The notes under the pieces: model-generated
What the model was told of the DNA's origin: nothing
The model's input: the letters and a program-made list of their open reading frames with translations, nothing else
Databases searched by the model: none
Source: a virus
DNA: 64,000 bases
Direction: 5' to 3' (one strand)
IMG/VR virus record: IMGVR_UViG_3300035698_017588
Span: 1-64,000 of that record
Shown: one piece after another, positions 11,677 through 19,891 of the stretch
How the letters are laid out: each line of letters starts with the position of its first letter
Numbering within the stretch: the first letter of the stretch is position 1
Position numbers and translations under genes: made by a program

Positions 11677-12861
11677 TTATATTTGCTTGGAACGAACGAC
11701 AGATATCTCTTTCCACTGCTTCCAGCGGTTCCCCATCGACACCTTGTAAGGGAACACAAGATCCTGCGTAAAAATCCCATCAAACGGACGATAAAAAATC
11801 TCACCAACCTTCTCAACCACATGGCCCAAAATCTTCTTATCCTTAGGCAAAGAAAGGACCACACCATCATGGATGTCTGTAATTAAGTAGTTCGGAAACA
11901 TCCGACGAACATTCCATAACACATTCTGCATCGCAGCAGCAACACTACCCTGCAAAATAGCATTAAAAACAGAACGCTCCGTACGATCTTGCTTCAAACG
12001 AAACTGACGACCAACAATATTAGCAGAATACTTATCCTCACGAAGCTTCATCAACGTACCCTGCAACCAATTACACAACTTCGGAAACTCACCCCTAATC
12101 ACCTCATCAGAATAATCCAAACTATTAATCGTCTTCAACAACAACAGCTTAGCATCATCCCGAGCCTGACTACCACACCCAGTCAACCGCTTAGACAAAT
12201 AAGTATAGGGGTCAGAATCGAAGAAAGAACTATTAAGAGCATCATCACCCGAAAACAATGAAGCGATCCGAAAGTCAGCACAAATCCAGTCAAAATGCAA
12301 CTGCACTGACTCGTACGGCATCATAGGCTGATAAATCGCATCAGCATTAGACCAACCCTGAACATTAAAACCAGTACACTTCGATCGGCCAGAATAAGTG
12401 TCCCAAGACCAATGTGGTTCCATCTTGGTGTAATTCAACATCAAACCAGTGCGTTCCATTCCAACGTAAACGCTTTGTGCTTTGGCTAAGATGTTCTGAT
12501 ATGGACGATTAGGAACAGCCTTGACCAACTCGACGATCTTTTCACAAAGGATCTTATCCTTACTAGAATCGCCGGTTGATTTGATGGAACTGTAAGCATA
12601 GTCGCGAGCCTGCGTCCCGCCATGCAGCTCTTCCATATTGAAAGCTCGGAGCAGATCGCCCATATTCGGAGACCGGAAATCACCTTGAGCGGCCCACGAC
12701 AATAGTTCGTGTGCTCCATCAAAGCGTTTAAAGGTCTCAGCGAGACTCTTGCCTCCGCCCTGCCTGAAAATCTCGAAAGCGACAGTCTTCTGCTCGTTTT
12801 GGAAATGAAACCAAGCTGGGCGACCTTTATTGTCGATTGTCGCCACAGCATAGGTTGTCAT
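11677..12861 (-). CDS. Compact family A DNA polymerase without exonuclease domain
   Basis: 394 residues covering only the polymerase part. The palm entry segment WDTYSGRSKCTGFNVQGW matches the T-GR-S...NxQ pattern of Pol I. Motif A is FDWICADFRIASLFSGD (catalytic Asp kept; the usual steric-gate Glu is Asp). Motif B is RDDAKLLLLKTIN, keeping Arg and Lys but with Leu for the usual Phe. Motif C is ITDIHDGVVLS, with the catalytic HD kept and the usual Glu replaced by Gly. No 3'-5' exonuclease or 5' nuclease domain precedes it; the first 120 residues are unassigned. It overlaps the upstream zinc gene by 4 bases (ATGA). Since a Pol III alpha is also encoded, this may be a gap-filling, translesion or specialised enzyme. 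Confidence 0.75.
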   Translation of the reverse strand: MTTYAVATIDNKGRPAWFHFQNEQKTVAFEIFRQGGGKSLAETFKRFDGAHELLSWAAQGDFRSPNMGDLLRAFNMEELHGGTQARDYAYSSIKSTGDSSKDKILCEKIVELVKAVPNRPYQNILAKAQSVYVGMERTGLMLNYTKMEPHWSWDTYSGRSKCTGFNVQGWSNADAIYQPMMPYESVQLHFDWICADFRIASLFSGDDALNSSFFDSDPYTYLSKRLTGCGSQARDDAKLLLLKTINSLDYSDEVIRGEFPKLCNWLQGTLMKLREDKYSANIVGRQFRLKQDRTERSVFNAILQGSVAAAMQNVLWNVRRMFPNYLITDIHDGVVLSLPKDKKILGHVVEKVGEIFYRPFDGIFTQDLVFPYKVSMGNRWKQWKEISVVRSKQI

Positions 12862-14135: not shown

Positions 14136-15272
14136 TTACGTATTAATCTCTCGAACTTTCATGGTAGTGTAATTGATCTCGCAAGTAACGGTCTTGTGTT
14201 TAGGACCATTCCGATTCTTAGCAATAAAGAAACGAAAACGTGGAGGACTTGATTCACGTTCCTCGGGAGTCTGGTTGATGGTGATAATATAGTCCATTGA
14301 GAACTGCTTGGCATAAGACTCTGCCGCGTCCTTCAACGTAATAGCTTCGCCAGTAGATCCCGCTGACCTATTCGTCTGCGTAGCCGTGAATACTAACACA
14401 TTTTCATTTTTAGCAAAGCCCCGAACCTCATTAGCAACAGCCTTTTGCCGACTGTAATCATCACGATTAGCGTACTTATTCCGACTCACCATCAAATCGA
14501 GATAATCGATAATAACAACGTCCGGATACCAACCATGAGACCGACGAAGGTTATCTAGCAAGTGATACAAATGGTCAACACTACATTGCTCAGGCGGCAA
14601 TTCAGAAATAAAAATCTTGCCATCATAAGTCGTCTTCAACGAATTAATCTTGCTCGTTATTTCATCCTGGCGACTGACTAATTTGTCCATCGGGATATCT
14701 TCACCAAGAACGCCAAGACACCGCATCGAAGTCTTAATATAATCAAGCTCAAACGTCACCAACAAAACATCCTGCCCAACCCTACCACCAGGACCCGGCC
14801 CCTGCCAAGACGTAATGGCATTATTACACAGAACAATCGAATTATGGCTAACCAAACCAGAAGTATAATACCAATGCGGATCAGATATGGTAATATCATA
14901 AAAATCTTCCTCGGGACCATCATCAATATAATAGCCACCAGGAGAATAGTAATTTCCATGCCGTAGATGTTCACAATGGAAACCAACTAAAACATCATTA
15001 GTACAATCTATTTGATCAGCACGGGCTGCCGTTAATTTTCCATCCCTTATGATCTGTAAAACATGCCCAGGATCACAAGAAAATTTATCAGCTCGAAGAG
15101 AGAAAATCTTAGAAGGCCCGCGTTTCATGAACGCAAAATCAAGAACTTTAGTCCAGCCAGATGGGGTCAACACATGGTGAATAGCATCAGGATTCTCTTC
15201 TAAATCATCTTTAATGATTGATAATGGAACTTCTTGAAGTCTATTCGTCGGTTTAATTGATCTAATTTTCAT
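14136..15272 (-). CDS. Replicative DNA helicase DnaB/gp41, C-terminal piece preceded by C-intein
   Basis: 378 residues. Residues 1-144 are the C-terminal half of a split intein ending in YYTSGLVSHN. The +1 Ser (145) then starts the extein SIVLCNNAITSW, the rest of the RecA-fold helicase after Walker A. The Walker B region is VVIIDYLDLMVSRN, followed by VLVFTATQTNRSAGS and the arginine-finger zone MDYIITINQ. Joined by trans-splicing to the N-piece at 16297-17157, it would restore the P-loop GTNVGK-S. DnaB-type helicases unwind DNA at the fork. The intervening endonuclease gene and a 59-residue gene separate the two pieces. The start at 15272 overlaps the 59-residue gene in ATGA. Confidence 0.88.
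   Translation of the reverse strand: MKIRSIKPTNRLQEVPLSIIKDDLEENPDAIHHVLTPSGWTKVLDFAFMKRGPSKIFSLRADKFSCDPGHVLQIIRDGKLTAARADQIDCTNDVLVGFHCEHLRHGNYYSPGGYYIDDGPEEDFYDITISDPHWYYTSGLVSHNSIVLCNNAITSWQGPGPGGRVGQDVLLVTFELDYIKTSMRCLGVLGEDIPMDKLVSRQDEITSKINSLKTTYDGKIFISELPPEQCSVDHLYHLLDNLRRSHGWYPDVVIIDYLDLMVSRNKYANRDDYSRQKAVANEVRGFAKNENVLVFTATQTNRSAGSTGEAITLKDAAESYAKQFSMDYIITINQTPEERESSPPRFRFFIAKNRNGPKHKTVTCEINYTTMKVREINT
14841..15272 (-). mobile_element. Split intein, C-terminal half (DnaB P-loop site)
   Basis: Residues 1-144 of the C-piece. The last block reads DFYDITISDPHWYYTSGLVSHN-like with the terminal Asn and +1 Ser needed for splicing. It is longer than usual C-inteins (about 35-50 residues). 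It also contains a segment with TPSGW and RADKFSCDPGHVLQI that looks like the first half of a HINT fold (intein blocks A/B). The N-half already has a block-B-like stretch, so the two halves together appear to carry redundant material. Confidence 0.75.
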
Positions 15273-15448
15273 CTGTTTTCAAATTCCATGTGATTTTCAA
15301 TGGCCGATTGTACAGTTTCACCCACAGAAACCACTTGCGGCTTTCGTTTTTCATGAGGACGAAAACCTTCTGCTTTATATTCATGCTGAAGACGCAAATC
15401 AAGCCATTTGGCGTCCTCTAAATCAAGTTCGATTATTATTTTCGACAT
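15269..15448 (-). CDS. 59-residue ORF between the homing endonuclease and the DnaB C-piece
   Basis: Starts MSKIIIELDLEDAKWLDLRL and ends SAIENHMEFENR. It overlaps the endonuclease gene end by 26 bases and the DnaB C-piece start in an ATGA overlap, so all three could be read by coupled translation. The first 20 residues look like a strand plus amphipathic helix. Function unknown. It could be a small phage protein trapped in the fracture or a helper of the mobile element. Confidence 0.6.
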   Translation of the reverse strand: MSKIIIELDLEDAKWLDLRLQHEYKAEGFRPHEKRKPQVVSVGETVQSAIENHMEFENR

Positions 15449-16343
15449 CTTCTATAATCCCTTTGAGTCTTAAAAAAGCTTCCTTTGGTGTTTTCATAAT
15501 CTCTGATTCCCAGAACACGTGAACAACATATCCAAGAGCTTCGAGATCGTTTTTCCTAATCTCATCTTTTTCTTTTTTGTTCATTCGTCCGTCATTACAA
15601 ACAAAACGATCTGAATGCCAATAATCACCATAAACCTCTATTACAATATTATCAAATAAACAAAAATCTACACAATACTTGTCTATCAGAAACTCGAATT
15701 CAAAATCGAATTCGAAAGAATGCAACATGCCCCACATAGCAAGTTCTGGTTTAGTGACAATTTTAGATTGTAGAGATCTAGTTCTGGCAGACACTCTTTT
15801 AGTCTTATCAGTATGACCTCTTCCATGAAAACCATTATTAGAACCACATGACTTTTTACTTAATTCCTTTTTTATTTCCGATTTTGGTTTGCCGGTTCTT
15901 TTTTGAATCGATTTAATAGAAGCCGGGTTTCTAGCCCCAGAATTACATTCTCTCAACAACTTTTTCAATTCATCGGTAGAATACCTCTCAGCAATCCCTT
16001 TCTGACGAGAGCTTAAAGCGATAATAGCATCATCAACTTCCATCCCCTGATATAGATAGAACTCTATACATGATGGATTTCGGAGTCTGTTGATGCTACT
16101 ACATTCTCTAGCAAAACAAGAATAAGCAAAATCCCTTCTGTGAAGGTTGACATCTCGGCCGCAACCACAACAACATTTTGGGACTTGAAAATAATCTTTC
16201 AAATAATCCCCAAAATCCCCACCACGCTCAGAATTGCGTCTCTTAATACCATGTACATCATGTAAGTGTGTCATGAGCTTATTCGGATGAGATCCGTCAC
16301 ACTTCCAATCGCATATCTGACAATTCCAAATCCCAGGAATCAT
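15423..16343 (-). CDS. Free-standing homing endonuclease (Vsr/EDxHD type) inside the fractured DnaB gene
   Basis: About 306 residues from ATG 16343 (MIPGIWNCQICDWKCDGSHP); longer starts at 16370 or 16472 are possible. The N-terminus has zinc-finger-like units (CQICDWKC...HLHDVHGI; CCCGCGRDVNLHRR...CFARECSS) for DNA recognition. The C-terminal 110 residues form a Vsr-like nuclease: KPELAMWGML, YCVDFCLFDNIVIEVYGDYW, HSDRF, then LGYVVHVFWESEI. This matches the endonuclease family described with fractured genes and split inteins (Dassa and colleagues, 2009). It lies exactly between the two intein halves and is AT-rich, as expected of the element that broke the gene. Confidence 0.82.
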   Translation of the reverse strand: MIPGIWNCQICDWKCDGSHPNKLMTHLHDVHGIKRRNSERGGDFGDYLKDYFQVPKCCCGCGRDVNLHRRDFAYSCFARECSSINRLRNPSCIEFYLYQGMEVDDAIIALSSRQKGIAERYSTDELKKLLRECNSGARNPASIKSIQKRTGKPKSEIKKELSKKSCGSNNGFHGRGHTDKTKRVSARTRSLQSKIVTKPELAMWGMLHSFEFDFEFEFLIDKYCVDFCLFDNIVIEVYGDYWHSDRFVCNDGRMNKKEKDEIRKNDLEALGYVVHVFWESEIMKTPKEAFLRLKGIIEDVENNNRT

Positions 16344-17157
16344 CGACAGATGGTAAATCTCCGATCTCATCCTCTTCGGTAAGATCTTTAACTTTAACTG
16401 CTCCGCGTGCAGTTTGAACTTTTCTAAATCCTGCAAGTTGTCGAACCGTACCATCTTCCATCTCCAATTCATAAAGCTGTGAATTTTCTTTATTTACAAT
16501 CGAAGTTGATAAAGAATGGCATTTACCAACATTTGTTCCCGCAAGCCAACAAACAACCTCTTTAGGTCCTGGACCGCCATTATTGAGGAATTTATCAAGA
16601 CTTCGGAAACCAGAGGTACGATGCTCAATAGCAGACGGGCTGAACAATAATTCATAATTATCCAGAAGCCACAAACCCTGGACCTGCAGATCAGTAATCC
16701 GATTAGCCTCTTCGACGATCTTCTCGATCTCATCAAAATCCCCGTTCTGATAAGCAAGCATCGCCTCGTCTGAATAGATCAAGCCGAAAGCCCTCTTCCG
16801 AGCCCATTCGACCATCTTCTCTTTCAGAATGGGAACATCACGCGGGTTCGATTTCTGATCGATAAGTTCCAGAACCGATTCATATGGGTCATCCTCAGTC
16901 ATATGCTGAAGGATGAAATCACGAAGCAGGCCCCGAGTCGGGACGATTTGATGCTTCTCAATGTGATTAAGAATGATAGCGATTACGTATCGTGCTTCAA
17001 CCGCTTCGAAAAGATCTGGCGTTAAGAATCGTCCGATCGAAAGAAATAGATCCGGGTGATCAAGGGCAAGGGGGATCAGAGCCTTCTCAACGTACTTGCC
17101 AAATTCGCTCTCAGCCTCGTTATTTTGAGTGAGAAATTTGGAAGTATCTTCGTACAT
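16297..17157 (-). CDS. Replicative DNA helicase DnaB/gp41, N-terminal piece followed by N-intein
   Basis: About 286 residues from ATG 17157 (MYEDTSKFLTQNNEAESEFG). The N-terminal helical domain is followed by the linker and FRSLDKFLNNGGPGPKEV, the usual lead-in of DnaB. The chain then reads VCWLAGTNVGK, the P-loop up to its Lys, where Cys 213 begins the N-intein (CHSLSTSIVNKENSQ). The N-intein ends with the protein. The helicase cannot bind ATP unless the missing Ser and C-terminal part are joined by trans-splicing with the gene at 14136-15272. The upstream 118-residue gene stops 1 base before the start. Confidence 0.87.
   Translation of the reverse strand: MYEDTSKFLTQNNEAESEFGKYVEKALIPLALDHPDLFLSIGRFLTPDLFEAVEARYVIAIILNHIEKHQIVPTRGLLRDFILQHMTEDDPYESVLELIDQKSNPRDVPILKEKMVEWARKRAFGLIYSDEAMLAYQNGDFDEIEKIVEEANRITDLQVQGLWLLDNYELLFSPSAIEHRTSGFRSLDKFLNNGGPGPKEVVCWLAGTNVGKCHSLSTSIVNKENSQLYELEMEDGTVRQLAGFRKVQTARGAVKVKDLTEEDEIGDLPSVDDSWDLELSDMRLEV
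16300..16521 (-). mobile_element. Split intein, N-terminal half (DnaB P-loop site)
   Basis: 74 residues from the catalytic Cys to the stop. Recognised by Cys1 directly after GTNVGK and by the block-B-like stretch LYELEMEDGTVRQLAGFRKV with a GAVKVKDL turn after it. The segment that normally lies between Cys1 and block B (a VxTPxG...GD turn) is nearly absent, so the half is short. Pairs with 14841-15272. Confidence 0.75.
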
Positions 17158-17158
17158 A

Positions 17159-17515
17159 TTATGGTCCTGAAGTGCCGCTCGTACCTGATGTAAGATCAAC
17201 GCAATGCGTAGCGATCCTATTTTGAATTGCAGCTAGTTGATTTTGATGATACTGTTCTGCCAACGCAAGAGCATCACAGATCTGAATAAATTCGCATTCT
17301 TCGAAAGTGATAATTGCCCCATTTGTCAGACTCCGACGCTCCCCATAATGGGGAGCATGCGTTGGCAAATTGGGCCTAATTAGAATGGTATAAACCCACC
17401 CATTATTTCCACGGGTAACACCCGCAATCGTATGAGCTTCTAAGAATCCGACTGAGGCGGATTCTCGGAGGTAGACGGTTGTTCCTCGTTCGTAGAGGGG
17501 AGCGTCGTAGGGCAT
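17159..17515 (-). CDS. Hypothetical protein (118 aa)
   Basis: Starts MPYDAPLYERGTTVYLRESA, with an SH3-like beta pattern (GWVYTILIRPN) followed by a helical segment (CDALALAEQYHQNQLAAIQN) and a Thr/Ser/Gly tail (TSGTSGTSGP). No motif assigned. It sits between RecA and the DnaB N-piece; the start lies inside the 3' end of the recA gene (75-base overlap), which makes the start uncertain. Confidence 0.5.
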   Translation of the reverse strand: MPYDAPLYERGTTVYLRESASVGFLEAHTIAGVTRGNNGWVYTILIRPNLPTHAPHYGERRSLTNGAIITFEECEFIQICDALALAEQYHQNQLAAIQNRIATHCVDLTSGTSGTSGP

Positions 17516-19656
17516 GAGTCTGTTCCAGTGATTACATGATTGTAAATTCTCTGAAATAGATTTGGGTCTGTCGCCAATGTAGCAGCAGAAGCCGCCATAC
17601 CATTGCCAAGAGATTCCCCATCATATTTGATATGACTCCCAGAGACAGTAACAATTTTCTTATCTTTCGCTACCGTCAACAAGCTGGAATATGGGTCGAC
17701 ACCATAAATTGGGTATTCAGGCAGACCAAACGTGATATTGAATTCAGCGACAGTAAAAGGCGGTGCGATCTTATTCTTCTTGAACGTCACCTTAGTAGTA
17801 TTACCAACAACAGTATCACCAACCTTAAAAGAACCCGTCCGACGAATGTCCATTCGAATAGACGAATAGAATTTCAAGGCTCGACCACCAGGAGTTGTCT
17901 CAGGAGAGTTATGCACAACAACACCAACTGGATTACCACCAGCCATGTAATTATGATTCCCTTCTACAGAAATATCATACTTTCCCTTCTGCTTCATTTG
18001 TCGTTTGCTAGCTGGTCGAATATCAACAATCTCAACACCGCAAGATCTGAAAGCCCTTTTTCGACTAAGATTTAATGTTTTGTAAAACCCGCGACGACAA
18101 ACAGGTAATTTTCTGTCCATACATTCTGGGACAAAGCAAGCGATCTTAGAAGCAATATTTTCGCTGATGTCCACGTCAAATGTGACTCTGCCACCACGAG
18201 ACATGTAGTGGAATAAGCCTAATTCATCAAGTGCTCGACTAATTTGATCAAGCTTCTCACCATCACCAGCGAATCGTTTGATAGATAATTGATAACGTTT
18301 ACGTTCGTAAACAGCATCATCCATCATCCAAATAGCAAAACCAAGCCATGAAAAATTGTCAAGCAAAATCATTGGGTCGCGATTTGGATAATCACGCTTA
18401 ACTTCAGCAAATTCAGGATACTCTATTGAAGAATAAAAGACGCCAGAATTACATTTATAATCAGCCATCTTAAGACCAGCAGCAGAAAGAATTTCAGCCT
18501 TCCAATTCATATAATGAGTATCAATATTATCTCGAATCTTCAGAGCAGCTCCTAATCTCTTCTTATTTTTGGAGATATGAGAGTCACCGGACAACACTCC
18601 AGTAAGGAATTGACCAAGAGTGCCATTTGGGTGACCGTCTTCATCAAACACAAAACAATCTTGTTTTGTGGTAAGATGATCACCCACACTCAAAGAATCC
18701 ATTTGAACGAATTCATTATCACACAATACTTCGTGACTTGGAGTCACAGTGATTTGCATGGTACCGTTTTTCGTACCAGGACCACGCAATGAAACGTGAA
18801 GATAGTCGTCAGATATTTCTACATCACCATTGTGGTGCCAGTCGACGATTTTCTTTGGTTCGAATTCCTTGGTCTCGATGTTGTAAGACCATACCTCACC
18901 TTCAACCTTTTCATCATAAACTTGACGAATCGGCAATACTCTGCCATCTACAAATGGGATTAAAGTGTCGGCATGAAGGCAGCCGAACATGACGCCGATC
19001 TTCTCTCGGATCTGATTAACACACAATAGAGTGCATTTACTGGCTGAAACAGGGCCATTGATTTTAGCAAAGGCACGACTGTTCATTCGAGCATTAGCAC
19101 CAATTTGGTTGTTACCCTCAAGAGTGCCTTCGATTTCGTCTTTCGTGATCATGGCAGCGATAGAGTCGATGATCACCAATTCTACCTTGCCGGATTTGAC
19201 AAGCAATTCGACAATATCGTACGCTTGCTCACCATTACTCGGCTGAGAGAAGATCAATTCTTCGACGTTCAAACCGATCGCCGAAGCCCAAGTGGGATCA
19301 AAAGCGTGCTCGACGTCGACAAAAGCCACACGTCCTGGTCGTTGACCAGTCACTTTGCCAGAGTCGTCTTTGACGTCAAAAAGAGTGTTCTGAAATGCTG
19401 CACCGATTTTGAGGCACGTGGTAGTCTTTCCGCTCGACTCAGGCCCATAGATCTCGATGATCCTGCCTCTCGGGATTCCGCCGCATCCGATCGCCTCGTC
19501 GATACCGACGACACCGGTTGGAACGGAATCTACTGGGACAATAGCGTTGTCTCCAGCGAATCGTACGGCTTCGACACCATACTTAGATATGAAGTGTGCT
19601 CTCAGCTCAGTCAGATCTTCAATTGCTGTGCTCTTCGCTTTAACTTTCGCCATCAT
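17440..19656 (-). CDS. recA: RecA/UvsX recombinase interrupted by a LAGLIDADG intein
   Basis: About 738 residues from ATG 19656, which has AAGGTGAGA just upstream. Walker A is GPESSGKT (71-78), followed by FVDVEHAFD and Walker B LVIIDSIAAM. DNA-binding loop 1 region residues follow (NQIGANARM). The intein occupies residues 226-583, between CVNQIREKIGVMFG and SPETTPGGRALKFYSS, i.e. just before loop 2. The C-terminus has a variable tail, acidic and Ser/Pro-rich. RecA forms filaments on single strands for strand exchange; in T4-like phages this also starts replication. The spliced product of about 380 residues is close to bacterial RecA, closer in motif wording to RecA than to T4 UvsX. Confidence 0.93.
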   Translation of the reverse strand: MMAKVKAKSTAIEDLTELRAHFISKYGVEAVRFAGDNAIVPVDSVPTGVVGIDEAIGCGGIPRGRIIEIYGPESSGKTTTCLKIGAAFQNTLFDVKDDSGKVTGQRPGRVAFVDVEHAFDPTWASAIGLNVEELIFSQPSNGEQAYDIVELLVKSGKVELVIIDSIAAMITKDEIEGTLEGNNQIGANARMNSRAFAKINGPVSASKCTLLCVNQIREKIGVMFGCLHADTLIPFVDGRVLPIRQVYDEKVEGEVWSYNIETKEFEPKKIVDWHHNGDVEISDDYLHVSLRGPGTKNGTMQITVTPSHEVLCDNEFVQMDSLSVGDHLTTKQDCFVFDEDGHPNGTLGQFLTGVLSGDSHISKNKKRLGAALKIRDNIDTHYMNWKAEILSAAGLKMADYKCNSGVFYSSIEYPEFAEVKRDYPNRDPMILLDNFSWLGFAIWMMDDAVYERKRYQLSIKRFAGDGEKLDQISRALDELGLFHYMSRGGRVTFDVDISENIASKIACFVPECMDRKLPVCRRGFYKTLNLSRKRAFRSCGVEIVDIRPASKRQMKQKGKYDISVEGNHNYMAGGNPVGVVVHNSPETTPGGRALKFYSSIRMDIRRTGSFKVGDTVVGNTTKVTFKKNKIAPPFTVAEFNITFGLPEYPIYGVDPYSSLLTVAKDKKIVTVSGSHIKYDGESLGNGMAASAATLATDPNLFQRIYNHVITGTDSCPTTLPSTNEEQPSTSENPPQSDS
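17908..18981 (-). mobile_element. Contiguous intein with LAGLIDADG endonuclease in RecA
   Basis: 358 residues, from Cys in GCLHADTLIPFVDGR to the last Asn in VGVVVHN, with +1 Ser. Splicing blocks: ITVTPSHEVLC (block B), then KYDISVEGNHNYMAGG (block F) and VVHN (block G). Between them are two LAGLIDADG-like helices, LGQFLTGVLSGDSHI and WLGFAIWMMDDAVY, each with the acidic residue. The intein should therefore still encode a homing enzyme. Confidence 0.88.
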
Positions 19657-19891
19657 TCTCACCTTGGTTATCAGAATTAATAGCCGGTTTCACTTCCGTA
19701 GTGAACTGGCCTACTACCTTTACGGCAGATGGTTTAACACGTAGAATACGGGCACCGCGTGACAACACAAGGAATTCGTCGTGGCTAGATACAACAGACC
19801 ATCGGCCACTTGAATCAAACCCACCTTTCTGCCCAAGAACACCAGTGGTATCAATAATAATTACAATGTCGAAAGCACGGATATTCTTCAT
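19640..19891 (-). CDS. Hypothetical protein (83 aa)
   Basis: Starts MKNIRAFDIVIIIDTTGVLG, a small beta-rich protein with an acidic C-terminus (INSDNQGENDGES). Its end overlaps the recA start by 17 bases. It is the first gene of the long leftward unit; the 44 bases to the divergent gene at 19936 must hold both upstream regions. I see no strong ribosome-binding site before it. Family not recognised. Confidence 0.5.
   Translation of the reverse strand: MKNIRAFDIVIIIDTTGVLGQKGGFDSSGRWSVVSSHDEFLVLSRGARILRVKPSAVKVVGQFTTEVKPAINSDNQGENDGES

What the first reader, a model, noticed from the sequence alone, without database searches (positions are those of the whole stretch)
14136..17157. Fractured DnaB helicase: split intein at the P-loop with an endonuclease gene between the halves
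The N-piece ends the extein at GTNVGK and the C-piece resumes with Ser, so neither piece has a whole Walker A. Both carry intein halves and the endonuclease gene lies exactly between. This is the fractured-gene arrangement reported from metagenomes (Dassa and colleagues, 2009). Having it in the essential replicative helicase means trans-splicing is needed for replication.
Basis: partly seen in the sequence, partly recalled or inferred. Interest (0 to 1): 0.75.

Follow-up and report, generated by a model that had tools for sequence, protein, structure and literature searches.

The report
Phage helicase with two-part chimeric split-intein
A phage's copying helicase is made as two proteins that must be glued at the ATP-binding site by a split intein, and this intein is a hybrid: a nearly complete cutting-and-joining domain on one piece, a tiny catalytic stub on the other, plus a conserved, catalytically dead piece of a second intein that probably serves as the docking clamp.

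Summary
The only DnaB-type helicase on the 95-kb phage record is two ORFs broken exactly at Walker A (GTNVGK|S); the exteins rejoin to 446 aa, the length of an uninterrupted relative (L007), and match one helicase profile without gap or overlap. A DUF559/Vsr-like endonuclease and a 59-aa ORF lie between. The C-piece carries a nearly whole Hint domain, with its own block-B and block-F His and HN|S, lacking only about the first block-A strand, as in S1/S2-split inteins (VidaL, Cat/AceL-TerL). The N-piece supplies that strand (CHSLSTSIVN) but then adds about 45 residues homologous to the second (N2) half of a canonical split N-intein, without its catalytic His, and the C-piece starts with the matching basic strand MKIRSIK. 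The same chimera occurs in a distant phage (L090; exteins 41-45% identical, no endonuclease); the tail core is under purifying selection. A comparable tail without any splicing parts sits on split PolB genes. Best reading: an S1-split intein with a grafted 'capture' module that brings the pieces together before trans-splicing. Splicing and docking are inferred, not shown. New variant of a known kind.

The parts
16522..17157 (-). N-extein: helicase residues 1-212, ending GTNVGK (Walker A up to the Lys)
   Evidence: PHROG_19 positions 150-366; start ATG matches the start of the intact L007 helicase
16492..16521 (-). Catalytic IntN segment: block A strand CHSLSTSIVN with Cys1 at 16521
   Evidence: Cys directly after GK; the same in L090 (CHTLESKMIE)
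16357..16479 (-). N-tail: N2-lobe-like 'capture' module (QLYELEMEDG...KVKDLTEEDEIGD), block-B His absent; unique acidic extension continues to the stop at 16297
   Evidence: Canonical split N-intein HMM positions 43-93 of 94, i-E 1.2e-11 at Z=1000; net charge of the 65-aa tail -9; dN/dS 0.26 against L090
15423..16343 (-). Free-standing endonuclease gene (N-terminal Cys/His finger-like region, C-terminal DUF559/Vsr-like nuclease domain)
   Evidence: PF04480 E 3.5e-8; weak Vsr match
15269..15448 (-). Small ORF, 59 aa (MSKIIIELDLEDAKW...), overlaps the endonuclease end and the C-piece start; unknown
   Evidence: no PHROG match
15240..15272 (-). C-piece residues 1-11, basic strand MKIRSIKPTNR, like the start of canonical split C-inteins
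   Evidence: Best of 3378 possible starts in the window by a PSSM of canonical C-intein starts; charge +4
14841..15239 (-). Near-complete Hint domain lacking block A: block-B His70 (CDPGH, 15065), block-F His133 (PHWYY, 14876), His143-Asn144 (14846-14841)
   Evidence: hhalign against canonical Hint 6-129 of 129, E 1.4e-7; profile matches to CatC, gp41-1 and VidaL structures; TIGR01443 intein_Cterm E 9e-4
14139..14840 (-). C-extein: helicase residues 213-446 starting with Ser+1 (14840), Walker B and later motifs; stop 14136-14138
   Evidence: PF03796 E 3.5e-11; PHROG_19 positions 367-581

Best explanation
The replicative helicase of this phage is interrupted at Walker A by a mobile, split class-1-type intein of chimeric build. 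(1) The N-piece ends in helicase-GK followed by the first block-A strand (about 10 residues, Cys1) and then a tail derived from the N2 lobe of a canonical (UvsW/TerL-type) split N-intein. (2) The C-piece begins with the strand that opens canonical split C-inteins (MKIRSIK), the partner of that N2 lobe, then carries the rest of a complete Hint domain and the C-extein. (3) The acidic N-tail and basic MKIRSIK strand dock the two proteins (capture). (4) The block-A strand inserts into the Hint domain of the C-piece. (5) Cys1 acyl shift aided by His70, transfer to Ser+1, Asn144 cyclisation aided by His133/His143, then K212-S213 joining restores Walker A. The free-standing endonuclease spreads the whole insert to uninterrupted helicase alleles. 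Shown: anatomy, homologies, loss of the His in the tail, conservation in two distant phages, purifying selection on the tail core. Inferred: docking, splicing, homing.
For: Exteins complementary with no loss and an uninterrupted allele in L007; 73 of 80 relatives uninterrupted across the site, 6 contigs (two lineages) split, one partial. C-piece residues 31-144 align with canonical Hint 6-129 (E 1.4e-7) and with CatC (2.7e-5), gp41-1 (7e-5) and VidaL (2.3e-4). N-tail matches canonical N-intein positions 43-93 (1.2e-11; tblastn to S16 UvsW E 2e-4), so that region is present twice. The block-B His is present in all canonical N-inteins used, absent in both helicase tails and in the PolB tails, while CDP[GN]H is kept in both C-pieces. 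C-piece start ranks 1 of 3378. Independent allele L090: 41-45% identical exteins, same chimera, no endonuclease. Tail core dN 0.26, dS 0.99 (p 0.001); C-intein p 3e-5. Opposite charges. Capture by N2 and IntC is described for canonical split inteins, and said to be unavailable to a short-IntN split (PMC11923092; PMC13014065). The insert has 2 differences in 1680 bp against 1% around it.
Against: No splicing or binding data. Only two independent helicase examples were found. The AlphaFold model of the C-intein is unusable (pLDDT 39), so contacts are not modelled; N- and C-piece could not be folded together. Some of the canonical N-inteins used for the HMM were themselves found by similarity to this tail. 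Selection on the tail rests on 40 codons; over the whole 74-codon N-intein it is not significant (p 0.11).
Confidence: 0.6

Rival explanations
1. The tail on the N-piece and the MKIRSIK start are passive scars: a homing cassette from a UvsW-type fractured gene landed inside a helicase intein and left flanking scraps; the short block-A stub alone splices with the C-piece.
For: The tail and the start match the flanks of endonuclease genes in UvsW split inteins; very short natural IntN (15-16 aa) splice alone in other inteins.
Against: The tail core is under purifying selection between two distant phages (dN/dS 0.26, p 0.001), L090 keeps both scraps without an endonuclease, and a similar tail is kept on split PolB genes (dN/dS 0.26, p 0.01).
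Confidence: 0.17
2. Genes-in-pieces without splicing: the intein is dead and the two helicase pieces work as a non-covalent complex held by the tail module, like split NrdA or split gp43 of T4-type phages.
For: PolB pieces in L109 and L116 carry only the tail and MKIK start with no Cys1 and no block F/G; functional non-covalent split NrdA and gp43 are known (PMC2988022).
Against: All splicing residues (C1, block-B His, block-F His, HN, Ser+1) are kept in both helicase alleles; an unspliced product would leave Walker A split between Lys and Ser by intein segments.
Confidence: 0.12
3. Ordinary canonical split intein: N-piece and C-piece are simple complementary halves as in gp41-1.
For: Cys1 and HN|S at the junctions, endonuclease between.
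Against: Canonical positions about 50-93 occur in both pieces, positions about 11-42 are missing from the N-piece, its block-B His is gone, and the C-piece is 144 aa of near-complete Hint.
Confidence: 0.06

Closest known systems
Fractured-gene split inteins with free-standing endonuclease (Dassa et al. 2009, from memory; gp41-1, gp41-8, NrdJ-1, IMPDH-1)
   Same: Host gene of nucleic-acid metabolism broken in two by split intein parts with an endonuclease gene between; class-1 residues Cys1, HN, Ser+1
   Different: Those split at the endonuclease (S0) position, IntN about 88-110 aa and IntC 37-50 aa. Here the catalytic split is at S1 and the N2 region occurs twice. The insertion site is GK|S of Walker A
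Atypically (S1/S2) split inteins: VidaL (16 aa IntN), PolB16 OarG (15 aa), AceL-TerL and GOS-TerL (25-37 aa)
   Same: Short catalytic IntN, long IntC carrying block B; the C-piece profile matches the CatC and VidaL structures
   Different: Their N-pieces end after 15-37 residues. Here about 60 more residues follow, with an N2-like module and a matching strand at the C-piece start
gp41 of Vibrio phage vB_VmeM-32 (KU160494, L017)
   Same: T4-type helicase split at the P-loop, endonuclease between, long IntC lacking block A
   Different: N-intein of 27 aa with no tail, and no MKIRSI-type start on the C-piece (PSSM score -1.3)
UvsW fractured gene of Salmonella phage S16 (HQ331142, L016)
   Same: N-intein second half YELEMDDG...DELTENDDI and C-intein start MRLKSIK match the tail and the start
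   Different: Complete canonical split intein with block A, N1 lobe and block-B His

Membership tests
Fractured-gene split-intein arrangement (Dassa 2009) | One conserved gene in two ORFs, together complete | tested here: met
Fractured-gene split-intein arrangement (Dassa 2009) | Intein-derived sequence at both broken ends with nucleophile C1 and HN|S/T/C | tested here: met
Fractured-gene split-intein arrangement (Dassa 2009) | Free-standing endonuclease gene between the pieces | tested here: met
   DUF559/Vsr-like gene; absent in L090
Canonical (S0) split intein | IntN holds N1 and N2 lobes with block-B His; IntC about 35-50 aa | tested here: not met
Atypically (S1) split intein | IntC holds the whole Hint except the first strand(s) | tested here: met
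Atypically (S1) split intein | N-piece ends shortly after the block-A strand(s) | tested here: not met
   74 intein-side residues after the extein, with an N2-like module
Class 1 intein | Cys/Ser1, block-B His, block-F His, penultimate His, terminal Asn, +1 nucleophile | tested here: met
   Sequence and alignments
Class 1 intein | Protein splicing activity | not testable with these tools
   Needs expression of both pieces
Nested intein (twintein) | Inner intein with its own Cys1 and C-terminal Asn plus nucleophile | tested here: not met
   No second Cys1 before YELEMEDG, no HN|S/T/C after MKIRSIK
EDxHD homing endonuclease (I-Bth0305I family) | Vsr-like catalytic domain with the EDxHD residues | tested here: inconclusive
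   DUF559 E 3.5e-8, Vsr E 0.04; no I-Bth0305I structure match; residues not aligned
Homing endonuclease | Cuts the uninterrupted helicase allele | not testable with these tools
   Only indirect: low divergence of the insert between related phages

The most novel reading that the evidence does not exclude
Phages use a catalytically dead N2-lobe/MKIKxI pair, derived from canonical split inteins, as a portable docking clamp. In the helicase it is grafted onto an S1-split intein to give it the capture step it would otherwise lack; in split PolB genes it holds the two polymerase pieces together with no splicing at all.
Probability: 0.4. Interest if true: 0.78.

Novelty: new variant of a known kind. 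Interest (0 to 1): 0.62.

Why it matters
Short-IntN (S1) split inteins are prized for protein labelling, but the literature read here says short-IntN splits lack the charge-driven capture step of canonical ones (PMC13014065). If the natural chimera works as proposed, evolution has solved this by adding a separate, non-catalytic clamp, which would be a ready design principle and makes the roles of capture and catalysis separable in one system. The PolB tails bear on the open question, raised in PMC2988022, of how the products of phage genes-in-pieces assemble.

Tried and rejected
AlphaFold on the C-intein with a two-sequence alignment: pLDDT 39, not used; a wider alignment for a second job was misaligned by MAFFT and not submitted. 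tblastn of the C-intein or endonuclease against cultured phages: nothing. Scans of bacterial and archaeal genomes with N-tail and C-intein profiles: nothing confirmed. Endonuclease scan of viral contigs: only the same virus. Nested intein: rejected, no inner splice residues. Coconversion tract as proof of homing: differences do cluster next to the junction (16528-16591) but similar clusters occur elsewhere (12750, 17750, 20750), so kept only as a hint. Literature searches for degenerate or nested inteins as docking parts: nothing relevant in the held library; Dassa 2009 and Shah 2013 could not be read and are cited from memory or through papers that cite them.

Full report
What is there. On the minus strand, window 17157-14136, the replicative helicase of a 95-kb phage record is two ORFs. 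The N-piece (17157-16297) runs to GTNVGK at helicase residue 212, followed by Cys and 73 more residues. The C-piece (15272-14136) has 144 residues ending SHN, then resumes with Ser at helicase residue 213. PHROG_19 (DnaB-like helicase) is covered at 150-366 by the N-piece and 367-581 by the C-piece. L007, 83-87% identical, is the uninterrupted allele, 446 aa, exactly 212+234. Of 80 helicase relatives fetched, 73 are uninterrupted across this site, six contigs (two lineages) are split there and one is partial. The same split is in at least four contigs of the same virus from other metagenomes with about 1% DNA divergence, so it is not an assembly error. No second DnaB_C domain is on this record, an 84-kb record of the same virus or the 256-kb L090 record.

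Between the pieces. The endonuclease ORF most likely starts at 16343, overlapping the N-piece by 47 nt; its C-terminal part matches DUF559 (E 3.5e-8) and weakly Vsr. A 59-aa ORF (15448-15269) overlaps both the endonuclease end and the C-piece start. The four ORFs are thus a chain of overlapping genes.

The C-piece is almost a whole intein. A profile of the C-piece inteins (window, L090, Vibrio phage vB_VmeM-32) aligns residues 31-144 with positions 6-129 of an alignment of canonical phage inteins (hhalign E 1.4e-7; 5.7e-5 without the Vibrio sequence). It also matches the sequences of solved inteins: CatC 2.7e-5, gp41-1 7e-5, VidaL 2.3e-4 (weaker without the Vibrio sequence). It has its own block B (CDPGH), block F (DPHWYY) and SHN|S. 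Only about the first block-A strand is missing. This is the layout of the S1/S2-split inteins described in PMC13014065.

The N-piece is a stub plus a second intein fragment. After GK comes CHSLSTSIVN (Cys1, then a block-A-like strand), and then, with a short linker, QLYELEMEDGTVRQLAGFRKVQTARGAVKVKDLTEEDEIGD. An HMM of nine canonical split-type N-inteins (UvsW, UvsX, TerL) matches it at positions 43-93 of 94 (i-E 1.2e-11 at Z=1000); tblastn finds the UvsW N-intein of Salmonella phage S16 at E 2e-4 in 2.3 Gb. So the region of the Hint around block B occurs twice, once in each piece, and the N-piece copy has lost the block-B His (GNHK to GFRK). The C-piece starts MKIRSIK, the typical start of canonical split C-inteins (S16 MRLKSIK, L015 MKIKSIK), and ranks first of 3378 possible starts in the window by a PSSM of such starts; the Vibrio C-piece, which has no tail partner, scores -1.3. 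The best reading is that the N-tail and the MKIRSIK strand come as a pair from a canonical split intein and were inserted at the S1 position of another intein.

A second example. L090, in a 256-kb contig with exteins only 41-45% identical, has the same build at the same site: CHTLESKMIEENLSGIFEIELDNGKTLKLAGFREVQTARGPVKVCDLTEEDDI... on the N-piece, MKIKSINKTN... and a CDPNH block B on the C-piece, and only 88 bp between them, with no endonuclease. The tail core shows dN 0.26 against dS 0.99 (Fisher p 0.001) and the C-intein p 3e-5: both are kept as protein. Synonymous sites of the exteins are saturated between the two phages (pS 0.81-0.91) but those of the intein parts are less so (0.47-0.71), which suggests that the intein moved between lineages after the helicases diverged.

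A related tail without an intein. L109 and L116 carry T4-type PolB genes in two pieces. The N-piece ends with YLYEIELENGEVLKLLEDDNIKLKDGRIIQVKDLTENDEIS and the C-piece starts MKIKRIIKKS, with no Cys1 and no block F or G. These tails match the same HMM region, are more similar to each other than the exteins are, and are under purifying selection (dN 0.10, dS 0.40, p 0.01). There is no splicing machinery left here, so the conserved function is most simply association.

How it most likely works. In canonical split inteins the disordered, oppositely charged N2 lobe of IntN and IntC first capture each other electrostatically and then collapse into the Hint fold (PMC11923092). For the CL intein, PMC13014065 states that its short IntN and long IntC cannot associate in this way. 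Here the N-tail corresponds to N2 (net charge -9 over 65 residues) and the C-piece starts with the IntC strand (+4 over 11). I infer that the pair is a clamp that brings the pieces together; the block-A stub then completes the Hint domain of the C-piece, and Cys1, His70, His133, His143-Asn144 and Ser+1 carry out normal class-1 splicing, restoring GK|S of Walker A. Capture, splicing and endonuclease activity are inferred. The exteins are under strong purifying selection against L007 (pN 0.09-0.11, pS 0.8), so the helicase is presumably made.

Mobility. Between contigs of the same virus the 1680-bp insert has two differences against 114 in 11.2 kb around it (p 2e-5, ignoring clustering), and 14 differences crowd into 64 bp directly upstream of the junction. 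This fits recent spread of the insert, but similar clusters occur elsewhere in the region, so it is a hint only.

Limits. No structure model was usable. Several canonical N-inteins in the HMM were found through this very tail. Dassa 2009 and Shah 2013 could not be read here.

Noticed in passing
L109:5035-6220 and L116:5029-8260: T4-type PolB DNA polymerase in two genes whose ends carry only an N2-like tail and an MKIKxI start, with no splicing residues; L116 has an endonuclease-like ORF between the pieces, L109 none.
   Followed up: partly
L130:896-2683: Another PolB broken near its palm region, N-piece ending with a degenerate N2-like tail (PVEVELENGEVRKLYENNRVDVIRNGKKMEIKVKDLLETDDFLS), followed by an ORF resembling a Vsr-like nuclease.
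   Followed up: no
L110:4024-5769 and L114:4885-6693: Phage baseplate-like protein with an internal stretch (KIVFEFEDGTVFECEETRQLKTQNGWKQAKDLTEEDVIENL) that matches the split N-intein N2 region, embedded in one continuous ORF.
   Followed up: no
window 17440-19662 (-): RecA gene with a contiguous intein carrying a LAGLIDADG endonuclease domain; related inteins at the same site in L007, L053, L067, L085 and L090.
   Followed up: no
window 17750-18000 and 16528-16591: Clusters of differences between contigs of the same virus lie beside both the RecA intein and the helicase intein junctions; other clusters at 12750 and 20750.
   Followed up: partly
L017:4044-7119 (KU160494.1): Vibrio phage vB_VmeM-32 has an unannotated split gp41 at the P-loop: 27-aa N-intein, endonuclease, long C-intein; its UvsX gene is also split by an intein with an endonuclease between.
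   Followed up: partly
window 15448-15269 (-): 59-aa ORF of unknown function between endonuclease and C-piece, overlapping both; absent from L090.
   Followed up: no
L019:1609-4570: Streptococcus phage vB_SagM-GXN1 has unannotated large-terminase-type ORFs carrying intein parts at more than one point, one with an in-frame endonuclease-like domain.
   Followed up: no
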